The notes under the pieces: model-generated | Database searches by the model: none | What the model was told of the DNA's origin: nothing | Seen by the model: the letters and a program-made list of their open reading frames with translations, nothing else | DNA from: Dillenia suffruticosa | Lineage: Eukaryota; Streptophyta; Magnoliopsida; Dilleniales; Dilleniaceae | Reading direction: 5' to 3' | DNA length: 64,000 bases | Assembly (NCBI GenBank): GCA_033439265.1 | Contig: JAVTVX010000013.1 | Coordinates: 2,134,501-2,198,500 of the forward strand | Part shown: one piece after another, positions 7,114 through 49,168 of the stretch | Layout of the letters: the number at the start of each line of letters is the position of its first letter | How positions within the stretch are numbered: position 1 is the first letter of the stretch | Position numbers and translations under genes: made by a program

Positions 7114-7133
7114 GAGAGAGTAAAAGGATTGTT

Positions 7134-8110
7134 TGGATTGGTAGAGAATTACGAAGTGAGAATTTGAGAGAGGAATCGATGTTTCTTTTTTGTGTTTGTT
7201 ATGGGTATGTAGTTTTTTTATAGGGAAGGGGCAGAGAGAGAGAGGGGGGCGGAGGAAGGGGGGAGGGAGGGAGTGCGTGTGTGGGAAAGTCGTGAAAAGA
7301 CAGCGAATTAGAAATTGGTGGTCCGAATCCCTTTCGAATATTCGAATTTTAATTTGTTCATGTCTCCTCTTCTCCCTTCTTACTCGGAACGTCGAGAAAA
7401 TTATTTCTTTTTTCGAAAAAAGAATAAATGAAAAACCTTTTTTAAATATCCTGGTGAAAATAAACATTAATAAAAAAATAAAAAAATAAAAAAATAAAAA
7501 CAAATAATGACATTGATACTTTTAAATACCATGCTAAATCTGCATTTTTTAGATTCTCGGTGTTGAAAAATATAAAAATTATCTCCTAAAAAAAAAATCT
7601 ATAGGGAAGAAAGACAATTTAACAGGGAATTCAAATTTAGGAGTTATGGGCAACGATGATCTCAACCCCCACCATGAGATATTCTCTGGGTTTCAAATAG
7701 AATTTAGAATTGCAATAGACAAGATATTCGAATCACTGAAAAGTGCACCCTAACTCAAGTTACAGCAATTATAAAATCAAACAAATATCCCCAAATCAGA
7801 GTGTAGATTGGTAGAGAATTGGAAACTGAGAATTTGGGAGAGGAATTGGTATTTCTTTTTAGGTTTGTTATGGTTATGTGAATTTATTTAGAGAGAGAGA
7901 GAGAGAAGACAGAAGGAGGGTGAGTGATATGGTCATCGTGAGAGTTTTTTAGGAGATCAAATAGAATTCGATCTTGAAATTGGATTTGTGTTTCTACCAC
8001 CATTCGAATCTATTTTATATATTCGGATTCTAATTTTAAATTTCTCCCAATTCTTTCTTTTCGAAAAGTTGAGAAAATTAATTTTAAAAAATTTTGAAAA
8101 ACATTTTTAT
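7134..8110 (-). repeat. Direct duplication of the copy A promoter/5' UTR
   Basis: About 300 bp upstream of copy A (7134-7460) recurs at about 7806-8110 in the same orientation. Shared strings include ATTGGTAGAGAATT, GAGAATTTG, GGTTTGTTATGG-type spacing, a GA run, and a distal GTTGAGAAAATTA-like block beside TTTCGAAAA. The second unit has no family coding sequence in its 3' direction (7500-7800). It is therefore an orphan promoter left by tandem duplication. Confidence 0.7.
7216..7222 (-). promoter_or_regulatory. Probable TATA box of copy A
   Basis: On the minus strand CCCTATAAAAAAAC reads as a TATA box about 103 bp upstream of the copy A start codon. A GA-rich tract lies just beyond it. Confidence 0.5.
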
Positions 8111-8591
8111 AATAAAAGAAAGTGTGCAAACCTTATATTCAAATAAAAGTATGACACTTAAATTAAAATCCTTCCCATTAGTTGTTTATTAAGATTTGTT
8201 TAATACCCATTACTGGTTCTTGTTCTGGGGTTTGACTATTTGAGTTTAGGAAAATACCCATTTTTACCCCCCCCCCAAAAAAAAAACAAAAGTGTGCGTT
8301 ACCCATGTCACACATCATTCCCAAAAAAGAAATCTTGACAGGAGGATATGGAACTAAAATTGGGCTCATATGGAATTTGAATTATAAGTAGGAATACATC
8401 AAATTAACCTTATAATTTTTTTAAAATATTATATAAAAACAAAAAAGAAAAGGGCACATAAATTTGACAACTCCAATTTCCACGGCAATTACCATAAATT
8501 GAAATATAATCTATCAAAAAGACAAATAACCCACAAAAATGGATAGAATTTGCCTCCCCCCCCCAAAAAAAAAGGAGTTTTACTAATGGAA

Positions 8592-8990
8592 TTAGTTGAT
8601 ACAATTCAATATACAATCTAATATATATATTAGAGACAAATGTATTAAAACAACAAGAAGTAGTGACGAGAACATCCAAAGGAGACTTCGAATTTGGAGA
8701 CAAACTTTAGTCATGAGTCCCACCGGCACCATTAATATGCTATAACTCGTTGGAGGAAGACCAATCAAAGAAGCAACTTTGAGAGGCTTGTGGCCATCCT
8801 TTTTTTGATGATGAACCAGGACCCACTTCTTGGCAACATCACGTGTAAAATGTTCCTCTTGCTGTTTCTTCTGTGTCTGTGTGTTGATCATGCTTTGTTG
8901 TTGCGCAACATTGTCTCCTTCAACCACAGATTTTTTATGCCTAGGATAGAAGAAATCTGTTGGGAAAAGGTAGAATTGAAGACCAACCAT
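8592..8990 (-). CDS. MAGLQ family copy B with altered C-terminus
   Basis: Reads MVGLQFYLFPTDFFYPRHKK at the N-terminus and keeps the central TQTQKKQQEEH and KKDGHKPLKVASL blocks, then GLPPTSYS. There it diverges. Compared with copy C, the DNA after TSY differs by a net two bases. The frame then runs into a hydrophobic 40-residue tail (LLLVVLIHLSLIYILDCIL) encoded by what is 3' non-coding sequence in copy C. The total is 132 residues, against about 82 for copies A and D. Coding plus 3' flank (about 8440-9030) is clearly homologous to 24.8-25.4 kb. It could be expressed with a new C-terminus or be an early pseudogene. The start is set by the family block. Confidence 0.6.
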   Translation of the reverse strand: MVGLQFYLFPTDFFYPRHKKSVVEGDNVAQQQSMINTQTQKKQQEEHFTRDVAKKWVLVHHQKKDGHKPLKVASLIGLPPTSYSILMVPVGLMTKVCLQIRSLLWMFSSLLLVVLIHLSLIYILDCILNCIN

Positions 8991-9030
8991 GAAAACTCTC
9001 TCTCTCAACAGAGAAATTACGTCTAATTGA

Positions 9031-11389
9031 GTTGGATTGTATGCTTTGTTTGTACAAGGGGAAAAAAAATTGTATCTGTTTTTGTAAAGTTGGGTGCCAA
9101 GGCGAAGACCAGGAGACCGCAATAGACTCAAATTTGGAATCTTCCTTTTTTAGAAATGTTTTTTATCCCTCGAATATGCCGTGTTTGATATGCAGTGGGA
9201 ATGCAGAGTGCAAATTTTAAACAGAACACATATATTTATTTCCACGTTTCTCTCTCATGTCATTAGAATATAAATTAGAAGTTTAAACAGAACACATATT
9301 TATTTTCTCATGTCTTTCACACGTTTCTTTCTTGTGCCTGGACTAGTGAGTATGCTTTTTGTTGGATTTTTCTAGAGGCATGTATAAGGAGTTGCATGTT
9401 GCTTGGAAGCCCCCTCTTGAGGGTTGGTTTAAACCGAGTGTGATGGAAGTTAAAGGCGCAGTGACCACCACAGGTTAATGAATCAGAATTTGTTAAGGGG
9501 ATTGGATATCAGTTTCGTGGCGAATTTGTGTGGTTGTTGTGTTATGTAGGCTGAATTGTTGGGGGGGGGGGGTTTATTTGATGGCCCTTGATTGCGTCGC
9601 CAATTGGGTATTGACAAGCTCCTTACTGAAATGAACTCAAAAGACTTTTCTCAACCAGGGAGTGATAACATTGCAAAAGTTGAAAGGAATAAGGGGCGGA
9701 GCTGTGCCCCCCCCCCAAGGGTTGCCTCTGCATCCCGGTGCTGCAGCACTCGGATGAAGGCTGAGAAGATATGGTTTCCCAGCGCTTCGGCGTTAGTTCC
9801 CTGGTTAAGCAGCGCTGACGCTCGTCCTCCGATCTTTCATTCTTCCCCCCCCCCTCCTAGAGTAATAAAGTATTCAATAGGGAAGAGAGAGCATTTATGG
9901 TGTTTGTGCAATCTCCTAGTACTTCACCTTCAATGTCTCCACTGGGTGTGTGTTGTTTGTTTCTTTGATTGCTCATTACCTTGCTTCTATTTCTTGTTTC
10001 TTGTTCTTCGTTTCTTCGTTGCAAGTCACGACAGCCTGAGGTTCTTATATCTGTTTTCTGCTTGCTTCTCTCTGTTGATTGGCCTTCTGATTTGCTGTGT
10101 CTTGTTTGCAGCATTTTGCTCTACGCCTGGCATTGAGGTCTGGTCCTTTTTGTGTGTGTGGGTGTGCGTGTTGGGCTTAGATTCGCTTAGGCCCCTTCCT
10201 GATACAAAAATAAATTAAAAAGAATGTTGTGTTAATCGATATTTGAACACATTTATTGCCATTTTGTGGCTTTAGCAATGTCATGTTCTCATTTTTTTTC
10301 TTTCTTTTTATCATTACTGTTGTTTCGTGCACTTCCCAAGAGGGGATTTAAAGAAATTCTTAATAACAAGATTATGATTAAGATTTTATGTCCTAAGGTT
10401 TTGTCAACATCTCAATTACCTCAAATTGATTTCACCAACTCTTAGGAAGTCTATGGAGAGCCCTTGAAAAAGTTGTGGTCAAATTTAAGTAAGCTTTTGT
10501 GGATATAATGATAAGTTTGTTCCTTTGATAAAAATAATAATAATAATAACTTCTATTTTCAAAACTATGTATTTTCTATAAAAAAAAATTAAAAAAAGTT
10601 TTACTTTAATTAAAATATTAAAATATAAAATAAGATAAAATAGTGATAAATTAAACTAAGTTGAAACAGCTTAACGTTTCCCAAAGAATCCCCAATTCTC
10701 TCATTTAGTCTTGGTAATGCTAATTTTATCATCAAAACTTATCAATTAATTGTTTATACAGATTTTAATTCACACGTATCGACAAAAAAAAAAAATTGAC
10801 AATGAACATTCAAGAGAGTCATGTAGCACAAAGGGGAAAAAAAATTGTTCAGCTTGAAAATACCAATGTTATTTATGTTTAATAAATTAAACCCTAAAAT
10901 CAGAGAGCAAATTTCATATTTAATAAAAGTATGAACTATAAATTTCAATTTAGATAAATCCGAGTAGAAGATGCATGACCCACAAGAAAACGATTATTGA
11001 ATTAGATATGCAAATTAATTTTTTTGATGAATAATTAGATTAACAAATTAAAATACTGTCAATAGACATTTAGTTTAATGACCGTTCTCCCATGCAAAAA
11101 GTCTGCTGCTTTTCGTTGGATTTGATCTTTGATTTTGTCTCTTCTATGCTCAAAAGTCAGTAGTGAAAGAGAAAGATGTATAAAAATCAAATTATGGTCA
11201 AAGAAATTTTGGGAACAATGAATATTAGAAGGTATAAGGATTAAGGATTGAAATTGTGGATATAAAGTTAATAATTTGAAACCCCCTCCCCCACCCCCCC
11301 CCCACCCCCCAAAAACAGAGAAACTGAAAAAAGATATAGCTACTTACCTGTAACTTAATTTCTTGTCGTTCTTTATGCTTTGTGGGATT
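9031..11389. other. Intergenic spacer with no supported gene
   Basis: Holds a short imperfect tandem duplication near 9220-9320 (units starting TTTAAACAGAACACATAT). It also has C-tracts near 9700 and 11281-11310, and a T/C-rich stretch around 9850-10200 that is open on the plus strand for 208 codons. That open frame has low-complexity composition and no family match. The rest is AT-rich. Confidence 0.5.
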
Positions 11390-13192
11390 TGTCAAGAAAA
11401 GTTGTTGTTATTGAGCTTTCTGCAAAACAAAAGGGAAGAGTTATGGAACTTATAACAGCTTTAGATTGTGCAGATTTCCGAGAAAATCTGGAATTCGACC
11501 ATCAAGGCTGCTGTGTTTCCGAGATCACTGAAACAGGAAGGGAAAGCAAAATTTGTTCGGAAGGCTGCAGAGAAAACCGGATAAGGCATAGTGATGGGAG
11601 AATAAAAACTTAGTTTCCAGGGCTTGCATCTGCTTAAAATCTGGCAGAGGACCAACCAGACCCTAACCTGAGAGTTTTCTGCAGCAAAAAGTGTATTTCT
11701 AATAAGGGCTTTGACATAGGTCTCACATATCAGTAATTGAAAATGCATACATTGCTGTTACTCCTGGAGGGTCATCACTGCTACAAGTCGCCATTGCCAA
11801 ACAGTAACACTTGGGAGACAAGGTTCTCCACTCCATCCCTTCAGCTGCTCAAAGCTGCTTGTAAAGACTCGTAATCCATCCACAGCCAAGCAAATTAAAA
11901 GCTTTAGCATAAGGCACGTGATAAAGATTGGGCGGGGGGGAAGGGGGCTCACAATCATCCTGTGATGTTCCTGTTGTAACAAGTGAATAACTAGCCCTAT
12001 ACACTTCAATAGCACTGATAATCAGAGGCAATGTCGAGTATTCTGTTGGGCGTAACTCCACAGTCAAGGTCCCTTCTGATTGTGAATTTGCCCAAGCCCC
12101 CAAGCATGTCCTATACTCTGGATTCAGGGTTAAAATTTTCTCACCATTCATATTGAAATCGAACTGCCTAGTTTGATTTATCTCCAGCTCATCAACTTCT
12201 GTAAAGTCTACAACAACATGGTCCAGACTTTTGCCCTCGCTCAATGGAAATGACAAAGTAATGGCGTCTGCAGTAGCTGGTGCCTCAACAGCTTGGATTA
12301 TATAGCAACATCAGGAGGATCATCGATGGTTGTGGAGTAGACTGTCAAAACTGACATTTACTACAACAGTGCCATTAGGAATTTTTGGTTCCCATATTCA
12401 GTTGTGATCGTCCCTAGGGTACCTATTTGACAACAAATATTGCATCAGTAATGACATATAAATTGTAAGCATGATAAAATGATAAATTTTGATCTGTAAC
12501 CAAGATCCTACCCGAAAATAGGTTCTGTTGCTCCATAATCGTATTGCTTCATACTAAACCAAGCCAAGTCCCTTGTGATGCCAGCATACATTGCATCGGG
12601 CAATGGAAATGCTTCCAAGGAGGATATAAAGGGAAAACGATCATCCATGGTTCTAGCCCGATTTGAGAAAAGTGGTCTCCTTTGCTTGCATAAATCATCT
12701 CAGAATAAACAGGATCTGTCAGCGAAGTCACCACCGGAGTCCCAATCAAACTCAAGATCAAACTTTGGAGGCTTTGAGCGCCCATCGTAGTTTCCGTAAC
12801 GAAATGCCACCTTTGTGAAGTACTTCAAGAATGAAGGAGTAGGCAGAGAGTAGCAGTTCTTGTTCTGCTCTGTGAAGACCCAGTGTGTTCAGTGGCTTGA
12901 GTGGGATATTGCTGTTTCGCAAAACCTGTTTGTTCTTGCCAGGCTTAATGTAATCCTCATGTGTCTGCCCTTTAATGTTAGCTAATTTGATAGGTCTTCT
13001 CTGACCCGCAATCTATGCTTAACTATTCAAAGGTATCTGAAGAAATCATCCATCAAATAAGACAAGAAAGGTAGTTTAGTATAGAGAAAGAAGAGAGAAC
13101 ATATGCTTTTGAAGTTACCTTTGGTGGTAGTACCCTAGAATAGAAAAAAGGAAACTAAACACTAACAGCAATGACAGTGGTTTCATTGTCAT
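11390..13192 (-). pseudogene. Malectin-like domain / LRR protein pseudogene
   Basis: Reading the minus strand from 13192, the first exon (13192-13119) encodes a signal peptide and ends in a GTAACT donor. Next come recognisable malectin-like segments: SIDCGSEKTY, HEDYIKPGKNKQV, FRYGNYDGRSKPPKFDLEFD, TPVVTSLTDPVYSEMIYASK, DDRFPFISSLEAFPLP and QYDYGATEPIF. A second-lobe exon (12256-11950) includes LDHVVVDFTEVDEL and STLPLIISAIEVY. Then follow the LRR N-cap (FEQLKGWSGEPCLPS) and LRR remnants (GLVGPLPDFKQMQ, SLDGRIPDFLGNLHNLKLL). The order matches plant receptor-like proteins with a carbohydrate-binding malectin-like ectodomain and LRRs. These pieces lie in different frames, with stops at SCLF-stop, SG-stop-GLVG and NNNFS-stop-QIP. 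No kinase domain is seen. The copy is dead. Confidence 0.85.
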
Positions 13193-13278
13193 TCCTTCCA
13201 GGTTAGTATCAGTTTCCCGGACTTTCAGGTGGTTTTATAGAACACTCTATCTCAGAGAAAACTTTTAAGAATTCTCCA

Positions 13279-13304
13279 CTCTCTCTCTCTCTCTCTCTCT
13301 CTCT
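13279..13304. repeat. (CT)n microsatellite
   Basis: About 13 CT units just upstream of the malectin-like relic. Confidence 0.9.
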
Positions 13305-14795
13305 TGCGCGCATGTGATCCTCACACCTTTTGATAGATAATAGTTATAATTAGGCATATGCTTGTTATGGTCGATACAGTCTGAGAGTTAGATTATTAAA
13401 CAAGGCTGAATTCAGTAAACTAGTAATCTCAATAAGTTTTACTAACTAGTGTTCCTACAAAATTGGATCCAGAATCACTTTGGGAGATGGGTTCTTATGG
13501 GAACAAAGGCTGGTGCAGATTTTACCAAAAAAGGGCTTTAAAGGACATCAATTCAGAGAATGGCCGGGATTTGTATGTTTGGGGCCTGTGTGACTTCCCT
13601 CACAAGTAAACAAGGACCAGATATTGAAAGTGTGCATTCCTATCAACCTTTTCAACTGGCACTTGCGATTCTGTTTTTTGTTCTTGTCACTGTCCATACA
13701 AACCATAAGAAATGGTTAGCATTTTGAAGCTTTTGAGTTCTTCATAAGTCCAATTAAGCTATTATTGCTTCCCCTATCCACCAGAGTCCTCCAAACCATT
13801 AACAGAGCCATGGAGGACATTACATGCACCAAACCATACAAAGACTTGACAACAATGTAACCTCTTATAAATAATATCGTAGCAATCCAATACATACAAA
13901 ATTTTCAGCAGTATTATACAGAAAAGCTGATAACATAGGAACTAGACAATGGCACAAACAAAAATGCTATACAAGTTATGGAGAAAATTACAAAATGCTA
14001 GACAAGCTATTCTAATTGTATACATAATTGTGAATGTTGAGCAACAAATAGAAAAATGATGCAAAGCATAATTTCAAATCCCCTTCATACTAGTTAAGAA
14101 ATCAAGGTCCGTTTGTTAATGTGAATCAAGAAGTTTTAAGAAAATGAAAAGAAAAAAAAAAGATGTATATTATATCTTAATATGCAAGACAAATTAACAT
14201 GAGGCATTGCCTGATGAATGGCACTCGTGAAGAACATCAGTACCCAACCCCCCCCCCCCAACCAAAAAAAAGCCCAAACAAACAAATCAATTAAAACCAT
14301 GACCTGCCAAATTGACATGCATGGAGGCAGAGACATTTCAATGCAAGTTCAGACATCTCCGCAGGCACTTCATGATTGATGCTATGTACATCGGAGCATT
14401 CGAGTAGATCACCCACTGATTACAACTTTATTTTACCTTTGTCCAAGTTTCAACTTACAACAACAGATTGAGGTTTCCGTCATCTCAGTTAAGTGTTCTG
14501 TGTTCTGCTACAGCTACATTGTTAGGTTAGCTTCACTAAGAGCAGTTTACATTCCAAAAGCAACTCTTAGAGGGCAAAACCCTTGCACAAGTGTACAGAT
14601 AGAACAGAGAACTACTTGGCATCAACAGAAACAGGGAAAACAAGATAGAGAGACTGTACTTGAAATTAGAATTTCAAGCTTGGAGGATAATCTTGTTTTT
14701 GCCTCTTATGTTTAAATTTGCTAGAAAGCACTAAAAAGCCAGCAGAAAGGATATATTCCCATTAATTATATTTTAAAAAGAAGAACAACAAGTAC
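13305..14795. other. Spacer between gene relics
   Basis: No exon or element was identified. There is a C/A homopolymer stretch near 14250. Parts of 14.4-14.8 kb are less AT-rich and could be 3' UTR of the adjacent exon, but nothing is recognisable. Confidence 0.45.
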
Positions 14796-14961
14796 CTGAT
14801 ATGTGCAATGGAAGCTTGCCATCATGTCTATACAGCTTCTGAGGCTTCAACTTGATCAAGATTGCAGGTTGCTCAACACAAGGCCTTACGGTGCTGGCAT
14901 CATATTCTCCAAAAGCTCCCTGGTACTCAAAATTCTGTTGAACAATCTTGCTCCCAAACAC
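14796..14961 (-). other. Isolated intact coding exon of unidentified gene
   Basis: A 166-bp open segment with a clean acceptor (CATTTTAG) and donor (CAG|GTACTTG). It encodes a normal-looking globular stretch beginning VFGSKIVQQNFEYQGAFGEY, with later VRPCVEQPAILIKLKP and LYRHDGKLPL. I do not recognise the family. In transcription order it follows the last recognisable UFL1 exon (ends 15144 or nearby). It does not match the usual UFL1 C-terminus, so it probably comes from another gene. Absence of stops and codon-like composition argue for a real exon, captured or relic. Confidence 0.45.
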
Positions 14962-15579
14962 CTAAAATGACAACTCATGGCATTATACATAGTTGCAATA
15001 TGACAATTTTTCATTATAAACAATATCAATCAGGCCTACAGTGGACCTATCAATCTCAATTTCATGGCTACCCAATCGATCAAATTTATTGTACAATGAG
15101 ACAAGTAATGACATAATCTTATTAAATCAATGTCAGATGCCCTCATGTTTACTCACATCATCTGTGGCAGCAGCTATCAGCGCTAAAAGGGCCACTATTG
15201 CACTGTGGTAATCCATTAAGATCTTAAATGCCGAATCGTCTACTTTATCCTGAAAATTCAATTAACAAGGAAGTTGCGAGACAATTCGTAAGCACAAACA
15301 TCAAGTATGAGATAATATACTTTTTTCTTTTGGCATGAGGAGTGGGAGATTATAGAACCTACTGCTAAAACACGTCATAACAATATTAAAAATTGAACCA
15401 TCTATAATAAATAAAAGTAGTTAACTAACAAATTTAGGCAAATTTGGAAATTAGAAATTGAAACAGAAGCTCATTTTAGCATTACAAAGTATTTATAAAT
15501 ACCCACAGAATTCTCAGAAGGGTGGGACCTGAACCTTTGCTGTTATATGGCAAAGCTTTGATGCCACTGCCCCAAGAGA

Positions 15580-15955
15580 GAAAAAGATAACCAATTCTTT
15601 TTTTTTTCACATGGAACACCAGTTCTCAGATTTAATCCCTTATTTGTTTTTAGATCCAAAGATTAAGACGTCCAGATAAGATTTGCATGTTCCAATGACT
15701 ATAGACAAGAACAGAAAATTAAAAATAATAAAAAGATGAATATACATTGTCTAGTTGATAAGCTGAGAAAAAAATAACCAATTCTTTTTTTGCATACGGT
15801 ACACCAATTCTCATAATTAAATCCCTTATTTGTTTTCAGGTACAAAAAATTAAGATGTCCATAGAAGATTTGCAAGTTCAAATGACTATAGACAAGAAAT
15901 GGAAATAAAAAATAATAAAAAGAGAAATATACTTTATTTAGTTGATAAGTAGAGA
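15580..15955. repeat. ~185-bp tandem duplication in a UFL1 relic intron
   Basis: Two diverged direct units, about 15580-15765 and 15766-15955. Each has ATAACCAATTCTTTTTTT, TTAATCCCTTATTTGTTTT-like blocks, a TTAAGA-GTCCA block, ATGACTATAGACAAGAA and TAGTTGATAAG. Confidence 0.8.
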
Positions 15956-18900
15956 CCCTGTACCTTAAATTGAGCCACAGCAACATAAATGGCTCTTCCA
16001 GGAGCTTGAAGGGCTTTCTTGTGAGCCTAGAATCAAGAAAACCAATAAAAAAATTAAAAAAAAAAAAAAAACAAATGATGTCATCTATAATTTATAGGCG
16101 GCACAAATTGTTTGCTTGAAAAGAAGTGTAAATTGACAGACCTCTACATACAGCAGAAAGATAACTTTTGGGAGAAGTGAAACCAGATCAGTTTCAGCTG
16201 AAACTTGAGACATCAGAAAAGAGTAGAATAGCAATGTCATCTTGAATTCAATAGACCTAATACTAGGGAGAAATTGTTTATGAACTACAGAAAAAAAGAT
16301 CTGATGACTTTCTGTCATGCCAATCCCAATCTTTTCTCCATTACATGGAGATAACAGAAAATTCAAAACTTCACTTTCTGGCATATGGCCCTATAAAATT
16401 AGATTATATATTTTCTTACCCTTTTTTTTACTTTTTAGTTTTTTTGGGGGGGTGGGGAGGGGGCGCAGGGTGATGACAATTAGACCTTAAACCTTGAAAC
16501 AGGAGTCCACTTCTATACCAACTATAGAAATTCAACATTCTAATACTTCACAGGATTATTTGCAGCAATAAGTTACAGAAAATGAGCATACCTTACAATA
16601 TCCAGCTCTTGTACATGCAACCCACTGTAGAGAAAAATATTAGATAGATGTGCTAGAGACCATGTCACACCAATGCAGAAATACTGTCTAATATTTTGAC
16701 ACATGAGGCACAAAAGTAATAGACCAAGTGTAAGACTTATACTTCTTCTAGGTCATTATCAAATAGTCAATCATTTTAAAATGAGTTTGACACATGGAAA
16801 AGAAAATTCTAACAAATAACAACTAACCTTTCCATCTATAGCTTCAACTACTGCAAGAGCCTTTGCTGTAAGAGTTCTCAGAAAACTCTTTGCCTAAAAC
16901 GCAGAGAGAGATAGAAAGATTTAGTGATCTATGTGACTAACAAAGACTCATTCACTTTGTAGACTATTTCATCCATCTGCCAAGAATCAGTGAAATTGTC
17001 AAACACATAAAAAATTGGATCTTATTGCACAATAGCATTTCTTTCTCCAGAGTTAAGTGAAATGGATTCTGAATTTTCAGTCTTTAATTTCAAATACCAT
17101 TCTTCAATTTGTTGTGCATGTTCTGCATTAAAAATATATATATATTAGTATCAGACTTATCTGAATTTTCCAAATAACATACAAGATCAGATTTGGCACA
17201 AGTACTATCAAGTTATGTAAAAGAGAAGAAGTTGTTCTTAAGAGATGTCTGTGCAAAATAACCAGCAAATGATTGATAAAACTACCATAAACCATCTGCA
17301 GAACCAACAGCAACTTTTTGACAAACCAATCTAAGAAGGAAGAACTTACAGAGGTCGATTGGTCATCTTCAGGCAAATCTATCACTTCTCATATAACTGG
17401 ATATTTTAGAAAGTCTGAAAAGAAAAAGGGGAGAAAAAGCATAAATAAAATCACCAACAAAACATCATTCAGAAGCACTTACTTCTTTCCTTTTAAATGG
17501 CATATGAATGAAATGCATCAAGAAAATATTGTATGCAGCCAAATTCAATGCTCCGATCAGACGCTTACCTCATCAAGTCTCAGCTGCAAAATATCAAGCA
17601 GTCATTTCACTTTCTCAGCATTCTCTGTGAACAGTGCCTTTTCCTCTCTTTCCATGAATTGACCAACATAGGTTGCAAATGACTAGCTAAGGATCTAAGA
17701 ATTGTCTCAGGATCTTCAACACCTACTGGTGTTAGACAATATCATCCATCAGCACTAGGTAAAGGAAAATGCCTACTCAAATAACCTTTTCAATCTCATG
17801 AAGGCTCAATCATCTTTATAGGTTCAAAAAATCAAACCTTGTTCCTCCTGATGAGGAAAGAGGACTGTAATCTTCTGCAATAACCACTCATCAGATGGTG
17901 CACCATTGTCCTCTTTCATCAGATCCAACTCTTTCTTGGCACCTGCTTTTGATTCTGAAACTTGGAATGAAGAATGATCTTTTCCTTTCCTCTGATTTTT
18001 CTTGGATTTTGCAGGAACGTGTTCCGGATTATCCAAACCACTCTCAACTGATCCTTGCTTCGTACAACCTGCAGCTTTCCCCTTTTCTTCTTCGATCCTT
18101 TCTCCATTGCCAGTTTATTTGCAATACTGTCAATGACTGTCAGTTGAATCTGTAAGCCTGCCCGAATCATCGCCAGTTTTAGCTTTAGTCACTGATTACA
18201 AACCATCAGAAACCAGGATCGCAGATGCCCCTATAGGGCTAATTGTTTCCATCTCCTTCTCAATGCGATTAAATAAACCCTAAATGATGAAGCAAAAGAA
18301 AATCAAGTACATCAGGCGTATAGCTACCCAAACAGTTAGCCATCTAAAAGCATAAAATTCAAACACACGCACCAAGAGATGGCCAAGGAAATGAGATAAT
18401 TTCTCATAAGTGCCTAACCTGGATGAAGCCATTGCTAAAAACAAGAAACAAGACCCCCCAAGGATAAGTGCCCCGTTTGACTTCAAGACATCACAAAATA
18501 AATGGAAGTATGAATCTGTAATTAAAATAAAATGAGCAATCAAAGATGAGAACAAAAAAAATGTCACCTTATGGGACATTTGAACTGATTGACAAAGTGA
18601 TAAAATCTTAGATGCGTCTTGGGATCCAAAGGATGCTGGTAGGACAGAGCAAATCTAGAAGTCCTTTTAATTGGCTGAGGGAAGCATGTTTGATGAAAAG
18701 CAATCACAAAGAGGGAAGTTGACTGTTTAAAAAAATACTAAAACTTGTGTTCCAGTTCCAGAAAAGGTTGATGAATAACCTTTGGCTTCATTAACAAACC
18801 CATATATACTGTTGTGTGCTTAAACAACCTAACCCAGGTACTTTACTCCAACTCTTCCTATCTCCATTCCCCATCTTCCTCTATTTTCAAACCACTTTGG

Positions 18901-19941
18901 CCTCCTTCTGTGAAACATCTTAAAACTGCAAGACAAAAGGAATGAAACAGCGAAGGAACAAATATTATCCTACTCAGAATTTATGAAGACTAACAAGCTA
19001 CAGATGCAGCTGTTCCTTACCAGTTACCATGCTCAATAGCATCCTCATCTGCTAAATTTAACATCTCAACCATTAAAGGATGAACAAACATAATAGCTAG
19101 AGGAATGCCTTCAGGATATCTGGATTAAATTGTAGCATAAAACAAACTTATGATTAGAATCATTGATTACCATGAGAAGGATGAACAAATATACAACACT
19201 TAAATGAACATCTCAATCTTTTAAAAGAAAAGAGTCAATGAGAAAACCAAAATGGAAGACAATTGAAGCATAGTAAGCATCTGCAAGTACCGACTCGGCT
19301 GAGAAATCCCAAGTTTGTGCAAGATGTTGTAGCTGATAAATGCATTCTGCCGGGAAGAACAAACACTGTAAAACATAAAATTGCACGGAACCAGGAATAG
19401 TTTCCATGAAATAATTTGACAGTGCAATGCCAACTAAACATATTATCATTCAGCCTCACCCAGTTGGCACACCAACCATACTAGCCTAGAAATTTATCTA
19501 ATTGTAAACAGCTGATGAAAATAGCAACTACTCATACTAGGAAATTCTTTTCTTGTCAACCAAAATGATAGGCTTAAATCATACCATCAGTCAAAAGCTA
19601 ATGTCTCTTTCATAATCATTGACATTAAGATAAAGACTGAAGATATTTATATTTAACATATGAAACATAGGACGAACAATCACTTAATTAATTCATTTGT
19701 CCCTCTTGATTTTAATAATTTGCTTGCACCATGATCCAGTCTATGAAATTAAGTGTTGAGAAAGATCATTTTACTAAAAAGCCTGATGAAAGACTTGATA
19801 AACCACTCCACTGGATATATCATCAAAGATAATTCACTAATAATGGGAGGAACACAGGAAACAATAGTAAGCAATCAAACCAAATCCATGCAAAATGTTC
19901 AATAGAAAACATAAGATTGTAGATGTCATTAATATGCAGGA

Positions 19942-19946
<5 letters not shown>

Positions 19947-19977
<31 letters not shown>
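19947..19977. repeat. (TG)n microsatellite
   Basis: About 15 TG units, the only long TG run seen in the window. Confidence 0.95.
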
Positions 19978-19981
<4 letters not shown>

Positions 19982-20365
19982 GTTTAACTTTGCAAAAGAA
20001 AAGGCACAAGATCAATGGCTGAACTTACTCTACCCACAATGGAGTGTTGAACAAACACATCATGCACAGTGTCTACACAACAGAGAAAAGACTAGGGCTT
20101 CGCACCTGGGAGAAGAAAGAGTCTACACATTTGTTTCATGCATGAGCAAAAACCTGCCATGATCAATATAAACACAAAGGATCGATGATGTTAAACACAA
20201 AGAGACCCAACAATGTATTAATCAAAAACTTAAAACCAATAGAAGCATGTCACATATGGCCGATGTGCAATGAACTCTGGCTCCAAGTGATCCAAGAATC
20301 TGTCCATCCTTCAATAACACATTAAACAACGACCGGAAAAATGAACCCTTGACACCTCAGAGGTT

Positions 20366-20447
20366 GCAAAAATTCCAACCAGCTGAAAAGAAGGTTATGC
20401 TCATCAGCAAAAATTCCAACCAGCTGAAAAGAAGGTTATGCTCATCA
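20366..20447. repeat. Perfect 41-bp tandem duplication
   Basis: Two adjacent, apparently identical 41-bp units (20366-20406 and 20407-20447), starting GCAAAAATTCCAACCAGC and ending ATGCTCATCA. They lie just upstream (minus sense) of the first recognisable UFL1 segment. Exact identity implies a recent slip or repair event. Confidence 0.93.
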
Positions 20448-20818
20448 TACTGTGAATGTCTTAAACAAGATATTTGTGCTATATGCATAAGTTTCAAATC
20501 AGGCAGTTGGCCAATATGTATCAATGCCAGCTGGAGCTCTTACATCTGATATGAGCCAACACATTGACAAAGAGGCTCTATTCTTCTGTAACTAGGGGAC
20601 AACGGCAGTTATTGTTCTGATATGGCCAATGTGGAGCTAATGTCACTGAATTCAGAATGACCATGAAAAGAAAAATTTACTGCCTGCATGATCTAGACTC
20701 CAACTAACACTGCAATTGTGGTTTATGGTTGGAAATTATAACAACACAGAAAACAGAGAAAGACCCGATATCACTTGCTGCAGTTCAAAATTGGAGGAAT
20801 ACTCAAAAGAGAACTCAC

Positions 20819-22411
20819 CTCCTGGTTATGATTTTCTCCAATAGCTTTTAACTCAAATTCCTCAATAGACCCAATTCTTTGAGCCATCTTATATCCGGCA
20901 AGACCAGCTCAAAATGCACGAAGTCAAATCAGCTTTCCAACAATGGTCTTTAAATCGCAGGTAATCTCGTGTAATATTGATTCCATAAAACATATACAAG
21001 ATGCATGCTGTAAAAATAAATAGCTGTGCAGCCCATGTCCCTATCTGTACATTGGATTATGCTTGCAGAGAAAAAACTAAATTGTACGAATCTTAATAAT
21101 TGTCTTCCAAAAGAAACATATGGAAGATAAGATCGCTTAGTTTCACCTCCAAAAGATGCAGCAACAGCAATGGAACCATCAAGAGATCCTGTAGCACTTG
21201 CTGCTGCAGCAGCAAAGTCACCAGCTCCTATTGCAGGGACAAGACTGCCCAAAGTAGGGGCCAAAGCACCTAATCCTGCACCAATTGCAGGGGCAGCCAG
21301 CCCTGGAACAGACAAAGACAACAATATCATAAAGGGCTCTGTTTAACTCTGCATTTACAAATTGAATCCATCTGCGTGGCTGTGTTCAACAGTAGGACTC
21401 CCAATCTTATACCACCGGTGACTACCATCAATGTTCCCCCAGTCAAAGCAGCTTCTCCAATAATTCCTCCTCGCTTCCATTTATCCCAAGGTCTTTGTGG
21501 AGATTTAGTTTCTTCTTCAGTTTCACCATCCTCTTTCACCGAAGCCATTAAAGAGTAAGCAACCATTTATCTCCATAGCTTCATACAAAATGTAAATTCT
21601 CAATGCAGAATAACATCTGTAACCAATTTGTCAAGCAGTACACATTAGAATGACAAGCATAATTTTCATGTTTAGGTTCATGAAATGGACCAGCGACGCA
21701 TAAATCCATGCATGCGCTTGAACCACCATCAATGAATCATATATGTTCACATACAAAATCCAAATTTTAAATGATGAACAAAGTGAATATGCATACCATT
21801 TGAATCCATTCAACACCAAGCCACATTGCCATCAACTGTAGAGCCACGCAATGTCTAGCGTCATATCCCTGACCTGATGGAGATCTTCTGCTATCAGTTT
21901 TAGGCTTATCTGCTGGACAGGGCAAGAAGTTCATATAATACTTCTATTTTTCTTTGATGACTTATTGATGTTCCCTCTTCCATTGGTTCCTCACTTCCAA
22001 CTTCATTGATCATCTTTCCTACATGGGATATGTCTGAGCTTGTAAATTGGCTACTTTCAGGGTTTGCAGTTGATGCATCAGATTTTTTGTTCACTGACTT
22101 ATCATTCTCAAGTTTCTCATGGCACTTATGCTCATCTTCATGTTGTCTTTCATTTTCATTCTCAAAAGCAACAGATGCTTCCATTGACAGTACCGGTGCT
22201 TCAACACTTTTTGTTAATGCAAGACCTTTTCATTTGTTTTTGATGAAGTTCCATCACTTTCTTCAGATATAATTTCAAAAACTGTAATGAAATGAGTAAC
22301 ATGCTCAACAAACAAACAAGGTACACCAAAATACTAAGGGTTGTGCAAGAGCTGGAATAAAACCCACAAAAAAATAAAAACCCTTGGCTTTCAAACAGAC
22401 AGAGGCTGCAG

Positions 22412-22461
<50 letters not shown>

Positions 22462-23568
22462 CCTCTCACTCATAAATGAATACCATCAGATCAGAAGCAG
22501 ACATCTATGTATTTGGAGACAATCACCAATCTCAGGAGATAAAATATTTTTCAAACTATGATAGATTAGAAGAGAAGAACGTACATCTCCAAAATGATGC
22601 CTAACTTGCGATGACCATGCTGTTTCTTGTATCCCTTTCCATGCTTGCTCATCTATTCCCAGAAATCTGTTCAAAATTAAATGAGATCAAAGAAATACTC
22701 CGCGTGGTTGAAATCAAGATTTCCCAGAAAAACCCTAACTTCAAATTATGGATCTATTAAAAAAAAAAAGGAAATCAAATAAATCAAAAAAAGGATAGCT
22801 AAAATCACATTCATTTCAATATTGAAATGAAAGAAAACCTAAGAACTAGGGAAAGAAGAGAAGATTAATCCATAATTCTGGTTTCTTGGAAACGGAGACG
22901 CAACCACCGGTACTCATTCCTTCTCTGATCAACTGTTTGTCGTCGAGAAAGGCGAGAGGAGTGGAATCACGAGCCTGATGTAACTGAGACTGGTAAAAAG
23001 CGAGTGCAAATAGAGCGGCCGCTCCAAATTTCTAAGTCGGCGTCAGTACTGAAACCTCCATCTTCAAGGACATCAACAAAACACAAAACCCTAATCAGGA
23101 CTTTCAAAATGTGAAAATCGAACAAAGTTCTCTAGATTCTTACTTTCTCTTTTTTGCAGACGGAGATCAAACAACGTGATATTCGATCTTATCCACCTGG
23201 TTGAAATCAAGATTTCCCAGAAAAACCGTCAAAATTCAAATTATTGATCTGAAAAAAATGGAAGAAGAAGAAGAAGAAATCAAGTAAATCAAACGAAAAA
23301 AGATAATTAAAATCGCATTCATTTCAATATTGAAATTAAATAAAACCTAAGAACTGGGAAAAGAAGAGAAGATTAATCCATAATTCTGGTTTCTTAGAAA
23401 CGGAGACGCAACCAACGGCACTCATTCCTTCTCCGATCGGTTCGTCGTCGTCGAGAAAGCCGAGAGGAGTGAATCACGAGTCTGATGTAACTGAGACTAG
23501 TAAAGAGCGAGTGCAGAAAGAGTGGCCGCTCCGTATTTCTGTGTCGTCGTCAGTACTGAAACCTCCAT
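20819..23568 (-). pseudogene. DUF726 (TMCO4-like) membrane hydrolase pseudogene, 5' part
   Basis: Minus-strand pieces follow the plant DUF726 order. First comes an N-terminal exon (LTPT-KFGAAALFALAFYQSQLH, copy at 23061, duplicated at 23568). Then FLGIDEQAWKGIQETAWSS (about 22670-22588), an acidic segment with ENENERQHEDEHKCHEKL and SHQRKIEVLYELLA, GYDARHCVALQLMAMWLGVE, WDKWKRGGIIGEAALTGGTL, the Gly/Ala-rich exon 21302-21147 (GLAAPAIGAGLGALAPTLG), and KMAQRIGSIEEFELKAIGEN ending at 20819 with a GTGAG donor. Lesions are a TAG in the first exon, frame changes in the acidic region (about 22210 and 21920) and a TGA before AGLAGYKM. The catalytic alpha/beta-hydrolase half is absent: the next recognisable sequence is UFL1. 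Family members are predicted multi-pass membrane proteins with a lipase-like fold. Confidence 0.85.
22415..22459. repeat. (CT)n microsatellite in DUF726 relic intron
   Basis: About 22 uninterrupted CT units. Confidence 0.95.
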
Positions 23569-23687
23569 CTTCAAGGACATCAACAAAACACAAAACCCTA
23601 ATCAGGAATTTCGAAATGTGAAAATCGAACGAAGTTCTCTCGATTCTTACTTCCTCTTTTTCGCAGACTGAGATCAAACAACGTGAT
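22704..23687. repeat. ~490-bp tandem duplication carrying DUF726 exon 1
   Basis: Unit 1 (22704-23190) and unit 2 (23198-23687) are direct repeats of high similarity. Each begins GGTTGAAATCAAGATTTCCC and contains CATAATTCTGGTTTCTT, GAAACCTCCATCTTCAAGG, ACAAAACCCTAATCAGGA and GATCAAACAACGTGATATTC. Each unit contains the same start codon region of the DUF726 relic on the minus strand (ATG at 23061 and 23568). Confidence 0.92.
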
Positions 23688-23825
23688 ATTCGTCGGCAAG
23701 TTCCAGAGATGGATCGAACGCAAACAATTCTTGCGTGTCAAGTCGGTTCAGTCAAGTCGTAACGGTCAAATTTTTCGGACATCAGGAATGGAAGAGGGAG
23801 AAAGGGGGGAGAGGGCGACCTGATT

Positions 23826-23852
23826 CTGACCCTGACCCTGACCCTGACCCAG
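23826..23852. repeat. (CTGACC)n minisatellite
   Basis: Four CTGACC hexamers followed by a degenerate CAGACC. Confidence 0.9.
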
Positions 23853-23942
23853 ACCCAAGAACACGGACCGACGCAGAGACCATAGTGAATGAGCCCAGAT
23901 GGATCTGGGCTGCTCTATATTTATAAACCGGCTCGGTCAAGG

Positions 23943-23945
<3 letters not shown>

Positions 23946-23989
<44 letters not shown>
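23946..23989. repeat. (AT)n microsatellite
   Basis: About 22 AT units. Another AT run lies at 24701-24729. Confidence 0.95.
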
Positions 23990-23992
<3 letters not shown>

Positions 23993-24694
23993 CTCTGAGA
24001 TAGGTCAAAACTTTCTCTCTCTTCGACTGGTTCCCATTGGTCAGAACTTTATACCCTTTTTATACGTGACCGCGGGTTTAAGCAAATTCTTCCGAGCTCA
24101 AAGTGGACTCTAAAATTTAAGTTTAACTTGTAATTTAAGTATTAAATAAACTATGTCGGATGATAATTTCTTAAATAATTCATTGTAAATTTTAAATCGG
24201 TTTAATTGAAATATGGATTTGAATATCGATTGATATATTATAAAAAAAAATGGAATCTAAAATTTTAAAAATAAAATAATTTTTGATTTTTTATGTTGAT
24301 TAAATCCTTAAAAGAGTGTTTGGAAACACATGATAAAATATCAAATTATATTATAAAATTAATTTCATAAAAAAAATCAAAACTAAAAAAGAAACGGTTT
24401 TAAATTTGTTTGGTACAAAAATAAAAAATCCATTTTTGAATAAAACAATAACCTTATTTATGTAGATACGATATTTATTAAATAATCTATTAGTTAATAT
24501 GTTAAAAAATCAAAGTTCTATATTACTTGTAATTTTATTTTGAGACAATAAAAATTTTTTAAATAAAATATTCTTAAAATATGAATAAAAAAATTACAAA
24601 TTCTTTGTGATCAATTTTATTAAATCATTTGGCTCTCACTGAAAAGACACATGCAAACCAAAAGTTATTTTAATAACTGAAAATAAATAAATAA

Positions 24695-24731
<37 letters not shown>

Positions 24732-25053
24732 AAAATAATAGTTAAAACAGGAAGATTAGAAAAATATTTTTCATGTTTTTTTTAAACATAAAAAATAAAT
24801 TTGACTACTCCAATCTCCATGGAAATTTTCATTAACTCGTTACATAATCTATAAAAAGACAATAACCTATCAATATTTAGGAAAAAATTAAAATAAAAAT
24901 AAATAGAATTTACTGATTGAATTAGTTGATACGTTATTTAATTGAAAAGAAAAAACCCATAAGAGAGTAACCCACTCTATGATTGAAATTTGAATGGATC
25001 ATAATGTCAAGTGAAACAAAATAGACTTTGAACTTGGAGACACGCGTTGCTTA
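23990..25053. other. AT-rich spacer 3' of copy C
   Basis: No gene seen. From about 24795 on, the sequence is homologous to the 3' flank of copy B (8440 on), including the shared GAATTAGTTGATAC string. Confidence 0.6.
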
Positions 25054-25329
25054 TCAGACCCACCAGCACCATGTCTTCTGTAACTCGGTTGGAGGAAGAT
25101 CAATTAAAGAAGCAACTTGGGGAGGTCCGTGGCCGTCCTTTCTGTGATGATGAAGCAAAACCAACTTCATGGCAAGATTACGTGCAACATGTTCCTCTTG
25201 TTGTTTCTTCTGTGTTTGTCTGTTGATCATGCTTTCTTGTTGGGCAGCATTGTCTCCTTCCACCGCAGATTTTTTATGCCTAGGATAGAACAAATCTGTT
25301 GGGAAAAAGTAGTATTGAAGACCAGCCTT
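25054..25329 (-). pseudogene. MAGLQ family copy C, start codon lost and frameshifted
   Basis: The frame reads KAGLQYYFFPTDLFYPRHKK. The conserved ATG is AAG (25329-25327), and no in-frame ATG is seen at the block. Central blocks TQTQKKQQEEH and KDGHGPPQVASL closely match copy B. After LPPT an extra C shifts the frame to ELQKTWCWWV-stop. Removing that base in silico would restore a TSYRRHGAGG continuation, so the ancestral C-terminus was different. Copy C and its flanks are the sister of copy B, about 16 kb away. With both the start lost and a frameshift, it is most likely dead. Confidence 0.8.
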
Positions 25330-25335
25330 TGAAAA

Positions 25336-25358
25336 TCTCTCTCTCTCTCTCTCTCTCT
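25336..25358. repeat. (TC)n microsatellite upstream of copy C
   Basis: CT run immediately 5' (minus sense) of the lost start codon. Copy B has only a short CT run at the same place. Confidence 0.85.
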
Positions 25359-25379
25359 AGTTGGATTAGATTGTATGTT

Positions 25380-25891
25380 TTTTTTTTTTTTTTTTTTCGT
25401 GTAGGTGGATTATTTGACAATAACCGGTACTCGGATTCGCTCGATTAATCCGATCTGATTAATATAAAATTCTTCATGGAGTGATTGGCTCTTTCAAATT
25501 TTATTTTTTTATTTTTATGATTCGAACTCATAAAATATAATTAAAAGAGTGTAATATCCGATTATTATATTCACGAAGGTTTAGCTAAAAAAGAACAAGA
25601 TCATGTGTTTGTAGGTTGAGGATAGTAAAGTCGGTTTGTGTGACTCGAACGAAGGAAGTGCAAAGTAGAATCGAATTTGAAAACTTCCTATTGTAGATTG
25701 TCCTAGCATGCTACCATAAATTTTAATTAGCATGCTACTATACACTTGGGTTGATTTTACCAAAAAAAAAAAATACACTTGGGTTGATTTAAGGTCAACA
25801 TTTCTTCACCCCGCCATTTGGGCTAAGGCCCAACTTGAGATCAACATTTGGGCCTCTGCCTTGGCCCGGTTTGTAGAATGTTTGGGTTGAC

Positions 25892-25927
<36 letters not shown>

Positions 25928-27573
25928 GGTGGAATTGGCTTGACTCCTAGGTGTCAACAAATTGTTCTCCGGCATAAAATATATTCCAGGCGCCATGCCC
26001 TATGTTGCGTTCGTTTTAAGCGTCATCAATCACGGGGTTAAGTCATATTCACATTACACATTTTGCTGCAATGCCCCAATAATTGGGTCAGCACTCGTTG
26101 ACTTATATTTTAATATAGAAAAAAGAAAGTGAAATTCACATTCTGAATGTGATAAACCAAAGTCACAATTAAAAAAAAAAAAAAGTAATAAAAAGGGAGG
26201 GACTTGCACGTGTTTTATTTATAAATTATGAAAATTAAGGGGTCTTTATGACAAGGAGCATAATTTTTTTGTATATTATATTGCAGCATGTTAATATCTT
26301 AAGTTTGGATCATTCTACAATTATCATGGGGATTTGATACCCATGGAGTTTATGAATATTAAATCATCCTCTAATAATTGTCATTTTCTAGAGATTAAAA
26401 AAACTAAAATTCAATAATCATTAAATGATAATTTATAATTATAAATTTCATCAATATTAATGATTATAAAAAATCATAAAAAGATCAATGTCATCTTTTT
26501 TTTTTGGTTTATCTTTAAAGGCAATGGCATAAGGTGGAAAAGGAATTGGCTCATGGGACAAACTCCAGAACATTGCTAAAGGTTTGATTCCCTTTCGTAA
26601 TCTCTCACGCCAGTCCAAAGAATTTTCCAAACGTGAGACCGGCCAGAGTGTGACGGGGTGGATGAGTCCTAGACCGGAAAATTTTCCAACATTAAGGAAT
26701 ACCCGATCAATTTCTATCTCGAGGTTTGTTATATGCTTTATATGGGAGATTTGAACTTAAAATATTTAAAGAAAAAAAATAATTTTAATTGAGTTATAAT
26801 TGAAATATGTTATATGCTCAAAATGAAAATCACCTGCCTCCAAAAAATATTTTAAATATTTCTAATAAACATGGCTTAGCATTATTTATTTTCCGGGCAC
26901 AACCCCATATGCTCTTGGGCCGGGCTACGACGGACCTCATGATATGTTAGAGCAATATTTTATATCATTAATTTAATTTCACTATTTTATTATGCTTATT
27001 AAATGTAAAAAAAAAAATGTTCTACTGTGTAAGAAAAAAAAATTGGAAATGAATATTAAATAAAACTTTTTTTGTCTATTTTTTTTTTCTAATTATCTGT
27101 TTGCTACATTTGTTTGTTGAATAATTATGAAACAATTTGAAATTAATTTTATATTAAGAATATGAATTTTCCAATATACATGTAAGTGCACGAGTTAATA
27201 TAAAGAATTGGGAGGTCATAAATTAAAAGAGATTAAAAAGCAGCACAAGGGGGGACTACATAGAAGAAGAATAAGAAGCAGCAAAACGAACCAGCAAATA
27301 TGATCCACTCTTTATGAGTATATGCTTACATGAACTGGATTATCACAAAACTATCAAACAGCAGTAGACGGTTGACGAGTAAAGTTTGTCACTGGTCTTT
27401 CAAAACAGGGCAAAAACCATGAACCCCCCCCCCACCCCCAAAAAGGAGTGATTTTCAATATATGTCATGCTCTCATTCTAATGGAAAGAAATGGACTTTT
27501 ATTTGGGAAAAAAGAAAATGAAAAAGAAAAACAACGAGCCCAAGAAAGAGAGAGACTGTGAACCATGATCAAA
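25380..27573. other. Intergenic spacer
   Basis: T-tracts at 25380-25397 and 25901-25926. A SINE-like stretch lies at 26521-26700, and the remainder is AT-rich. No coding exon is supported. Confidence 0.5.
26521..26700 (+). mobile_element. Second SINE-like element
   Basis: An A-box-like TGGCATAAGGTGG (26525-26537) and a B-box-like GGTTTGATTCC (26581-26591) lie in an island of higher GC. A CCAAACGTGAGACCGG-type tail region follows. No target duplication was identified, so the borders are approximate. It differs in sequence from the 1.9-kb element. Confidence 0.42.
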
Positions 27574-27819
27574 CTAGCTAGAGCTAGAGTTTTGTTGCCT
27601 CAGCGGGGAGTTATTGGTAGAGATTAAAGCAACCGAAGAAGAATCTTTTCCTTCGTAAATCAACTTGTTCTTAGTATTTATTTCTAAATCTCTGCACAAA
27701 TCTTCTGTCTTCGTTTGGAAGGAAATCATACGCCGATTGTTGCTCTCTGAGTGGACGGTCGATTGTTGTAGAGGATTACAAAAATCGGTCGGGAAAAAGT
27801 TGTAGAGAAGTCCAGCCAT
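27574..27819 (-). CDS. MAGLQ family copy D
   Basis: Intronless 81-residue protein starting MAGLLYNFFPTDFCNPLQQS, with a central ISFQTKTEDLCRDLE and a Ser-rich end. It keeps the family start block and length but is the most diverged copy (FCNP replaces FFYP). No signal peptide or membrane segment is visible. A TATA box (TATAAAT, minus strand, 27944-27938) lies about 120 bp upstream of the ATG, supporting this start and expression. It is the far member of the same-strand array with A, B and C. Function is unknown. Confidence 0.75.
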   Translation of the reverse strand: MAGLLYNFFPTDFCNPLQQSTVHSESNNRRMISFQTKTEDLCRDLEINTKNKLIYEGKDSSSVALISTNNSPLRQQNSSSS

Positions 27820-48684: not shown

Positions 48685-49168
48685 AGATTGAGATTTGCTG
48701 TTGATACCCAGGTTGTATAGATTCATTTCCAGTTTCTAATGCTCACATTACGTGATTCTGGAAGGCTGTTATCTTCAAATGGAGTAGGAAAATCTTGTCC
48801 TGAAAAAGAGTCAAATTAGAAAATCTTATGGTTCTTGCTGCAAAAGAAGTATTTGCTGGGATGGGAGGAGCAAAGTTGTGGTGAAGTTGTTCCTTTGCTT
48901 GCTGCAGATGCCACAAATTCTTGATAGTGGACTCAACCCGCACATGCCATGGCTTGATGTCATTCTGTTCCAATCGTTTTTACTGGAAATGATGCTCCTT
49001 GATAATCTGGTTTATGAAATTTGTTTGCGTGCAACCTTTTTAAAGTTGCCCTGAATTGTAAAAATGGAAAATCTGATGGGCATTTTCCTGCTCCTATGGT
49101 AAACTGGTGAAGGTGATCCGGAGTTTATTTCGTTGTCACTTTGTTTCTCTATCTATATGTCACAAGAA

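What the first reader, a model, noticed from the sequence alone, without database searches (positions are those of the whole stretch)
11390..23687. Same-strand chain of fused, truncated, intron-containing gene relics
Seen: malectin-like/LRR, an unidentified exon, UFL1 and DUF726 pieces follow one another on the minus strand over about 12 kb. Introns are kept. The UFL1, DUF726 and malectin-like pieces are each incomplete and broken by stops or frameshifts. Unrelated genes being all collinear, all partial and DNA-derived is what gene-capturing elements such as Helitrons produce. A decaying whole-genome-duplication segment whose ancestral neighbours were on one strand could also give it. Either way it is an unusually rich chimera.
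Basis: partly seen in the sequence, partly recalled or inferred. Interest (0 to 1): 0.8.

Follow-up and report, generated by a model that had tools for sequence, protein, structure and literature searches.

The report
Decayed fused gene relics, segmentally duplicated
A stretch of a plant chromosome holds the dead, joined-up remains of three ordinary genes (DUF726, UFL1 and a malectin-like gene), most likely brought together by DNA breakage and rejoining and copied around the genome with larger chromosome segments, so it is a good example of a known process and probably not a new mobile element.

Summary
The chain is real. On the minus strand a truncated DUF726 gene (exons 1-6 of 15, exon 1 twice), a 5'-truncated UFL1 gene (17 of 20 exons detectable) and a malectin-like relic follow one another, introns kept, with frameshifts and stops. 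The "unidentified exon" is UFL1's last exon read out of frame. Intact sources lie elsewhere in the same genome: UFL1 on C10 at 16.32 Mb, DUF726 on C20 at 2.03 Mb. So it is a chimera, but Helitron capture is not supported: no Helitron-like end was found, DUF726 came with flanks, copies differ in their limits, and one pair shares at least 21 kb including satellite-like repeats. The same DUF726-3'-flank/UFL1-exon-3 join is found at two other loci; the window then lost the DNA between, at a join with an exact 41-bp duplication resembling end-joining filler. UFL1, malectin and neighbouring small genes recur in order on C35 beside matching flanking genes (87-89%), so that part predates the segment duplication. 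Best account: illegitimate joining of gene-sized duplicates, then segmental or whole-genome duplication and decay. Ordinary in kind, unusually well documented.

The parts
24237..24710 (-). 5' flank of the DUF726 relic, shared (70-82%) with the 5' flanks of other DUF726 copies on C20, C17, C21, C35 and C10; with the intact C20 gene only about 24264-24450 matches in this stretch
23347..23568 (-). DUF726 exon 1, upstream copy of a 507-bp tandem duplication
22839..23061 (-). DUF726 exon 1, downstream copy
20821..22666 (-). DUF726 exons 2-6 (22666-22585, 22281-21797, 21582-21418, 21302-21147, 20910-20821) with introns, frameshifted
20366..20447 (-). exact 41-bp tandem duplication (20366-20406, 20407-20447) holding the truncated start of DUF726 exon 7; filler-like scar at the join
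20365..20366 (.). join between DUF726 and UFL1 sequence (position accurate to about 10 bases)
14856..20365 (-). UFL1 relic, remains of exons 3-14 and 16-20 with introns; frameshifts and stops
13398..14855 (-). 3' flank of UFL1, collinear with the 3' flank of the intact UFL1 gene on C10
11345..13190 (-). malectin-like relic with frame changes; its start, LRR part and end are read by eye, and no transmembrane exon was recognised
   Evidence: Malectin_like; translation
8565..9022 (-). small-gene family member B (protein starting MVGLQFYLFPTDFFYPRHKK), next to the malectin relic here and on C35
24895..25361 (-). small-gene family member B' (86% to B over 258 bp), on the other side of the block

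Best explanation
A dead composite of three gene relics made by illegitimate DNA end-joining and spread by segmental duplication. Shown: (a) the order UFL1 relic - malectin relic - small genes is present here and, with the flanking genes, in a duplicate segment on C35. (b) At two other loci a DUF726 gene with both flanks is joined, about 410 bases past its stop codon, to UFL1 exon 3, and the window shares the altered bases on the UFL1 side of that join. (c) In the window the DNA from DUF726 exon 7 to that join is absent, and the scar has a 41-bp exact duplication. Inferred: the joins arose by non-homologous end joining or a related repair route; the C13/C35 pair dates from a whole-genome or large segmental duplication; further copies arose by segmental and tandem duplication; the pieces have decayed without protein-coding function.
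For: Intact sources: UFL1 C10:16328799-16322487(-), 20 exons, GT-AG at its 19 introns, PF09743+PF23659+PF25041; DUF726 C20:2026935-2031808(+), 15 exons, PF05277 318 bits. Same join at C35:23.552 Mb and C21:13.8226 Mb, the 2 other places read at base level: DUF726 side ends at C20-equivalent 2032222 in both, UFL1 side begins at C10-equivalent 16327983 and 16327986; the window shares the altered bases CTCTGAGGTGTC with C35, C21 differing from them at a few places. 41-bp exact tandem repeat at the window's join. Segment on C35: win 45270-48690 and 34900-38700 match C35:23811513-23814881 (89%) and 23820093-23823876 (87%), and UFL1, malectin and small genes follow in order at C35:23.846-23.862 Mb. 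Copies in big segments: C10:17.264-17.285 and C24:4.722-4.743 Mb are 96-97% alike over about 21 kb including satellite-like repeats. A maize chimera with 50 bp of filler DNA is explained by end joining (PMC2686159, passages read).
Against: DUF726 is not seen in the C35:23.85 segment (no match there; 23842001-23845590 not read), so the DUF726 part may be younger than the segment duplication or lost there. On C35 the UFL1 3' flank does not lie between UFL1 and malectin; a piece of it lies upstream. Four relic stretches window/C35 are 86.1-89.2% alike ungapped, five spacer stretches 80.4-88.4%: the relics are on the whole less diverged, which one event with neutral decay throughout does not predict. 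In the unrooted UFL1-tail tree the C35 partner groups with C24, C10:17.28 and C12 (support 100), not with the window. Microhomology at the window's join is not shown: the join has TTTGC and so has the 3' flank at C35 and C21, but the intact exon 7 reads TTTTCG there. No intact close malectin parent was identified. How copies reached other contigs is not shown.
Confidence: 0.75

Rival explanations
1. Helitron (or Pack-MULE/CACTA) capture: a transposon picked up fragments of three scattered genes in one orientation and inserted here.
For: The intact DUF726 and UFL1 genes are on different contigs; the pieces share orientation and keep introns; UFL1- or malectin-unit sequence occurs at 14 other places on six contigs, counted by me from the tables.
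Against: No Helitron-like 3' end on either strand of 9000-26000 (0; 20 shuffles average 0.4); the inverted repeats shown are AT-rich (25 of 39 pairs shown) and no informative inverted 12-mer links the flanks; DUF726 is involved with 5' and 3' flanks; copies begin at different points (UFL1 at win 20365, 17936 or 15597); one pair of copies lies in about 21 kb of shared DNA with satellite-like repeats. The end scan asks for a perfect hairpin and would miss a decayed end.
Confidence: 0.08
2. Pure fractionation: an ancestral segment carried DUF726, UFL1 and malectin genes as neighbours on one strand, and this copy is simply losing them.
For: UFL1 relic, malectin relic and small genes keep their order in two duplicate segments. 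UFL1, DUF726 and malectin-like sequences are also close together on C10 at 20.54-20.58 Mb.
Against: The intact UFL1 and DUF726 genes read are on C10 (16.32 Mb) and C20 (2.03 Mb); the DUF726-UFL1 boundary is a break inside UFL1 exon 3 against DUF726 3' flank, which loss of neighbours alone does not readily make. The order at C10:20.56-20.58 Mb is UFL1-DUF726-malectin, not that of the window.
Confidence: 0.13
3. Assembly artefact: the chain is a mis-join of contigs or haplotypes.
For: Only one assembly was available and no reads.
Against: Matches of 500 bp or more elsewhere in the genome are at most 88% identical in the search tables and at most about 90% without gaps, too different for allelic mis-joins; the order UFL1-malectin-small genes is also found on C35, and the altered UFL1 start at the join is found on C35 and C21.
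Confidence: 0.03

Closest known systems
Maize p2/p1 chimeric gene formed by end joining with filler DNA (PMC2686159; passages seen)
   Same: Two gene copies joined after loss of the 3' part of one and the 5' part of the other, with a short (50-bp) filler copied from sequence near the break; here a 41-bp exact copy of adjacent sequence at the join.
   Different: The maize case joins related neighbouring p genes and is discussed there as a source of new genes; here unrelated genes are joined and the result is decayed and multi-copy.
Non-collinear gene and pseudogene insertions in wheat homoeologous chromosomes (PMC3445842; passages seen)
   Same: Duplicated genes at new positions, some as pseudogenes, compared between homoeologous segments; break repair and element capture are named there as proposed sources.
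   Different: Here the pieces form an ordered composite of three genes, parts of which are shared by several loci.
Gene-fragment-bearing Helitrons of maize (PMC2575219; search listings and start of abstract seen)
   Same: Fragments of unrelated genes collected in one place (details of orientation and introns recalled, not read).
   Different: No Helitron-like ends found, no common unit limits, DUF726 with flanks, long duplicated surroundings in one pair.

Membership tests
Helitron with captured genes | 3' end: short hairpin followed by CTRR (and 5' TC) | tested here: not met
none on either strand of 9000-26000 with perfect stems of 6 or more and half GC; a decayed end could be missed. The 5' TC was not tested.
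Helitron with captured genes | Copies share the same two termini, inserted between A and T | tested here: not met
   limits differ between the copies read; in the pair read furthest one end was not reached. The A/T insertion site was not tested. Copies on C27, C10:22.13, C35:22.09 and C35:25.04 were not fetched.
Terminal-inverted-repeat carriers (Pack-MULE, CACTA) | Long terminal inverted repeats around the block | tested here: not met
   25 of 39 pairs shown, AT-rich; no 12-mer inverted match with three or more letters and three or more G/C between 9000-11500 and 23600-26000.
Processed (retro-) pseudogenes | Introns absent | tested here: not met
   introns are kept between the exon remains.
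Duplicated (DNA-level) pseudogenes | Introns and flanks kept, intact paralogue elsewhere, disabling mutations | tested here: met
   UFL1 and DUF726. For malectin no close intact paralogue was found.
Segmentally or whole-genome duplicated block | Collinear flanking genes in a second segment | tested here: met
   C35:23.81-23.86 Mb, 2 of 2 flanking genes tested. That the duplication was whole-genome was not tested.
Chimera by non-homologous end joining with filler | Break in two unrelated sequences with a short copied or microhomologous scar | tested here: inconclusive
   break inside UFL1 exon 3, break in DUF726 3' flank, 41-bp exact duplication at the window's later deletion. Microhomology not shown; the repair route is inferred.

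The most novel reading that the evidence does not exclude
The DUF726-UFL1-malectin composite, or the larger segments carrying parts of it, is moved as a unit by an unrecognised agent able to carry 20 kb or more without conventional ends, which would explain its recurrence on seven contigs.
Probability: 0.05. Interest if true: 0.6.

Novelty: new member of a known kind. Interest (0 to 1): 0.3.

Why it matters
It shows how an apparently captured multi-gene chimera can be told from transposon capture by finding the intact sources, the exact joins and the duplicate segments. It gives an orderable series of joins, duplications and deletions in one plant genome, and it warns gene annotators that gene models at this locus would be relics.

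Tried and rejected
Helitron and inverted-repeat ends were sought and not found. The 'unidentified exon' as a fourth gene was rejected. The sharp shared boundary at win 21249 of DUF726 copies on C21, C35:24.81 and C35:8.11 first looked like an element end; it is a shared internal deletion (C20-equivalent 2028902 joined to 2031138) that the window lacks. The sharp boundary at win 15597 on C24, C10:17.28 and C12 also looked like an element end, but those loci resemble one another well beyond it. An idea that the copies are concentrated near contig ends was dropped by rough reckoning without a call. A close intact malectin parent was sought: stop-free matches covering about 100 or more of the 153 residues are at most 48% identical (C10:20.5754 Mb), closer matches are partial or carry stops, and C35:1.972 Mb (55%, 2 stops) was not read. 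The C35:23.57 Mb malectin copy is also split over two frames, and three frames of the C35:23.853 Mb copy gave no Pfam hit at E 0.01. Literature: five listings; I make no claim that this case is absent from print.
Full report
What is there. The window is C13:2134501-2198500 of a 596-Mb genome held in 37 contigs. That it is a plant is my reading of its gene content, not a tool statement. On the minus strand, from about 24.7 kb down to about 11.3 kb, lie the remains of a DUF726 gene, a UFL1 gene with its 3' flank, and a malectin-like gene. Malectin_like scores 39.9 and 43.3 bits in two different frames (cut-off 24.5), so the frame is broken; UFL1_C scores 20.8, below its cut-off of 24. A single-frame scan of 17.0-25.0 kb found no family, so DUF726 rests on alignment to an intact gene. 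The LRR part is read by eye.

The intact sources. UFL1: seven PF09743 matches were listed, all on C10, at three places. The one at C10:16.32 Mb gives a 20-exon, 820-aa reading frame with GT-AG borders at its 19 introns and all three UFL1 domains of Pfam. The copy at C10:20.563 Mb lacks part of exon 2 and has sequence between 20565713 and 20566166 that does not match the window; the one at C10:20.545 Mb has five stops within its match, some of which could be intron. DUF726: the exon matching PF05277 positions 219-247 was found at four places (C12, C20, C27, C17); the C20 gene is intact, 15 exons, 670 aa, 318 bits. Integrity of the other three was not checked.

How broken the relics are. UFL1: remains of 17 of 20 exons; exons 1, 2 and 15 gave only chance matches; 12 frameshifting indels and 5 stops, some indels being paired within one exon and so dependent on the alignment. 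DUF726: exons 1-6 and about 20 bases of exon 7; exons 8-15 gave only chance matches; 9 frameshifting indels counting the downstream exon-1 copy, and one stop in each exon-1 copy.

The joins. UFL1 homology to the C10 copies reaches win 20349-20354 and DUF726 homology to C20 reaches win 20410. At C35:23.552 Mb and C21:13.8226 Mb the sequence runs from the DUF726 3' flank, stopping at C20-equivalent 2032222 in both, into UFL1 exon 3 at C10-equivalent 16327983 and 16327986, with about ten unassigned bases between. The window shares the altered bases on the UFL1 side (CTCTGAGGTGTC as on C35; C21 differs at a few) but has the start of DUF726 exon 7 in place of the 3' flank, with an exact 41-bp tandem duplication at the join. 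So the chimera most likely began with a DUF726 gene joined through its 3' flank, and the window later lost the part between. The maize p2/p1 gene, with 50 bp of filler copied from close to the break, is a published parallel (PMC2686159, passages). I first took TTTGC as microhomology at this deletion; it stands at the window's join and in the 3' flank on C35 and C21, but the intact exon 7 reads TTTTCG there, so that is not shown. DUF726 copies also share 5'-flank sequence with the window between about win 24237 and 24710.

Duplicate segments. Two flanking genes outside the block have their best other match on C35, in matching order: win 45270-48690 with C35:23811513-23814881 (89%) and win 34900-38700 with C35:23820093-23823876 (87%). 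The UFL1 relic, malectin relic and small genes follow at C35:23.846-23.862 Mb, although the C35 copy has a piece of UFL1 3' flank upstream of UFL1 and a 2.8-kb stretch between UFL1 and malectin without a match (159 bases of it not read). C24 holds a partial set: UFL1 tail and malectin at 4.726-4.730 Mb and the second flanking gene at 4.759-4.763 Mb, but no match to the first flanking gene. The malectin unit also has a small-gene relative beside it at C35:22.085-22.091 Mb. C24 and C10:17.27 Mb share about 21 kb at 96-97%, with satellite-like arrays and a raffinose-synthase fragment. Counting from the tables, UFL1- or malectin-unit sequence occurs at 14 other places on six contigs (C10, C12, C21, C24, C27, C35), besides the window, the intact UFL1 gene and a more distant malectin match at C35:1.972 Mb; the searches score only the best candidates, so this is a lower bound.

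Results against a simple story. Ungapped identity between window and C35 is 86.1-89.2% for four relic stretches, 80.4-88.4% for five spacer stretches and 79.2-85.6% for three small-gene stretches. The relics are on the whole less diverged than their surroundings; they may still have been genes when duplicated, or copies may have exchanged sequence. In an unrooted tree of nine UFL1 tails the C35 partner groups with C24, C10:17.28 and C12 (support 100) and not with the window; in a tree of eight DUF726 copies the window's place is unresolved (support 41), though it is nearer by identity to the relics on C35 and C21 (89.2-90.4%) than to the intact C20 gene (87.9%); in the malectin tree of six, the C35 partner is drawn to a very long branch and says little. 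DUF726 was not found at the C35:23.85 segment. These leave the order of events partly open.

Why probably not a Helitron. Parents are scattered and copies exist, but no end was found on either strand, no informative inverted repeats flank the block, DUF726 came with flanks and was cut down by later deletions, and the copies read have no common limits. A strongly decayed Helitron end could be missed, so this lowers but does not abolish the possibility.

Verdict. A new member of a known kind: duplicated pseudogenes joined by illegitimate repair, carried by segmental duplication, decaying. Function of the chain: most likely none as protein; transcription was not testable.

Noticed in passing
window 6865-7521, 8565-9022, 24895-25361, 27574-27876 (minus strand): Small-gene family (proteins beginning like MAGLQYYFFPTDFFYPR) in an interrupted row around the block; no Pfam match for the one member tested. 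B' at 25.0 kb is closer to the C35 gene (85.6%) than B at 8.6 kb is (79.2%).
   Followed up: partly
L039:207-626 (C10:17272207-17272626): Raffinose-synthase fragment (PF05691, 61.4 bits) in the duplicated C10/C24 segment that also carries UFL1-tail and malectin relics.
   Followed up: no
C35:8110452-8115301: Tandem array of three DUF726 pieces with the same internal deletion (exon 5 joined to just before exon 13), also seen at C21:13.82 and twice at C35:24.81-24.82 Mb.
   Followed up: partly
L048 start and L050 start (C10:17.264 Mb, C24:4.717 Mb): Satellite-like arrays with units of roughly 620 and 480 bp, read off the self-comparisons; the first lies inside the shared C10/C24 segment.
   Followed up: no
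window 24111-24252: Short dispersed repeat of about 140 bp, matching many contigs at 74-82% (40 of 452 candidates scored).
   Followed up: no
C10:20.574-20.580 Mb (L036): Two malectin-like genes in a row downstream of a damaged UFL1 copy and a DUF726 fragment, so all three families also meet here, in the order UFL1-DUF726-malectin; Malectin_like was tested by Pfam in the first of the two.
   Followed up: partly
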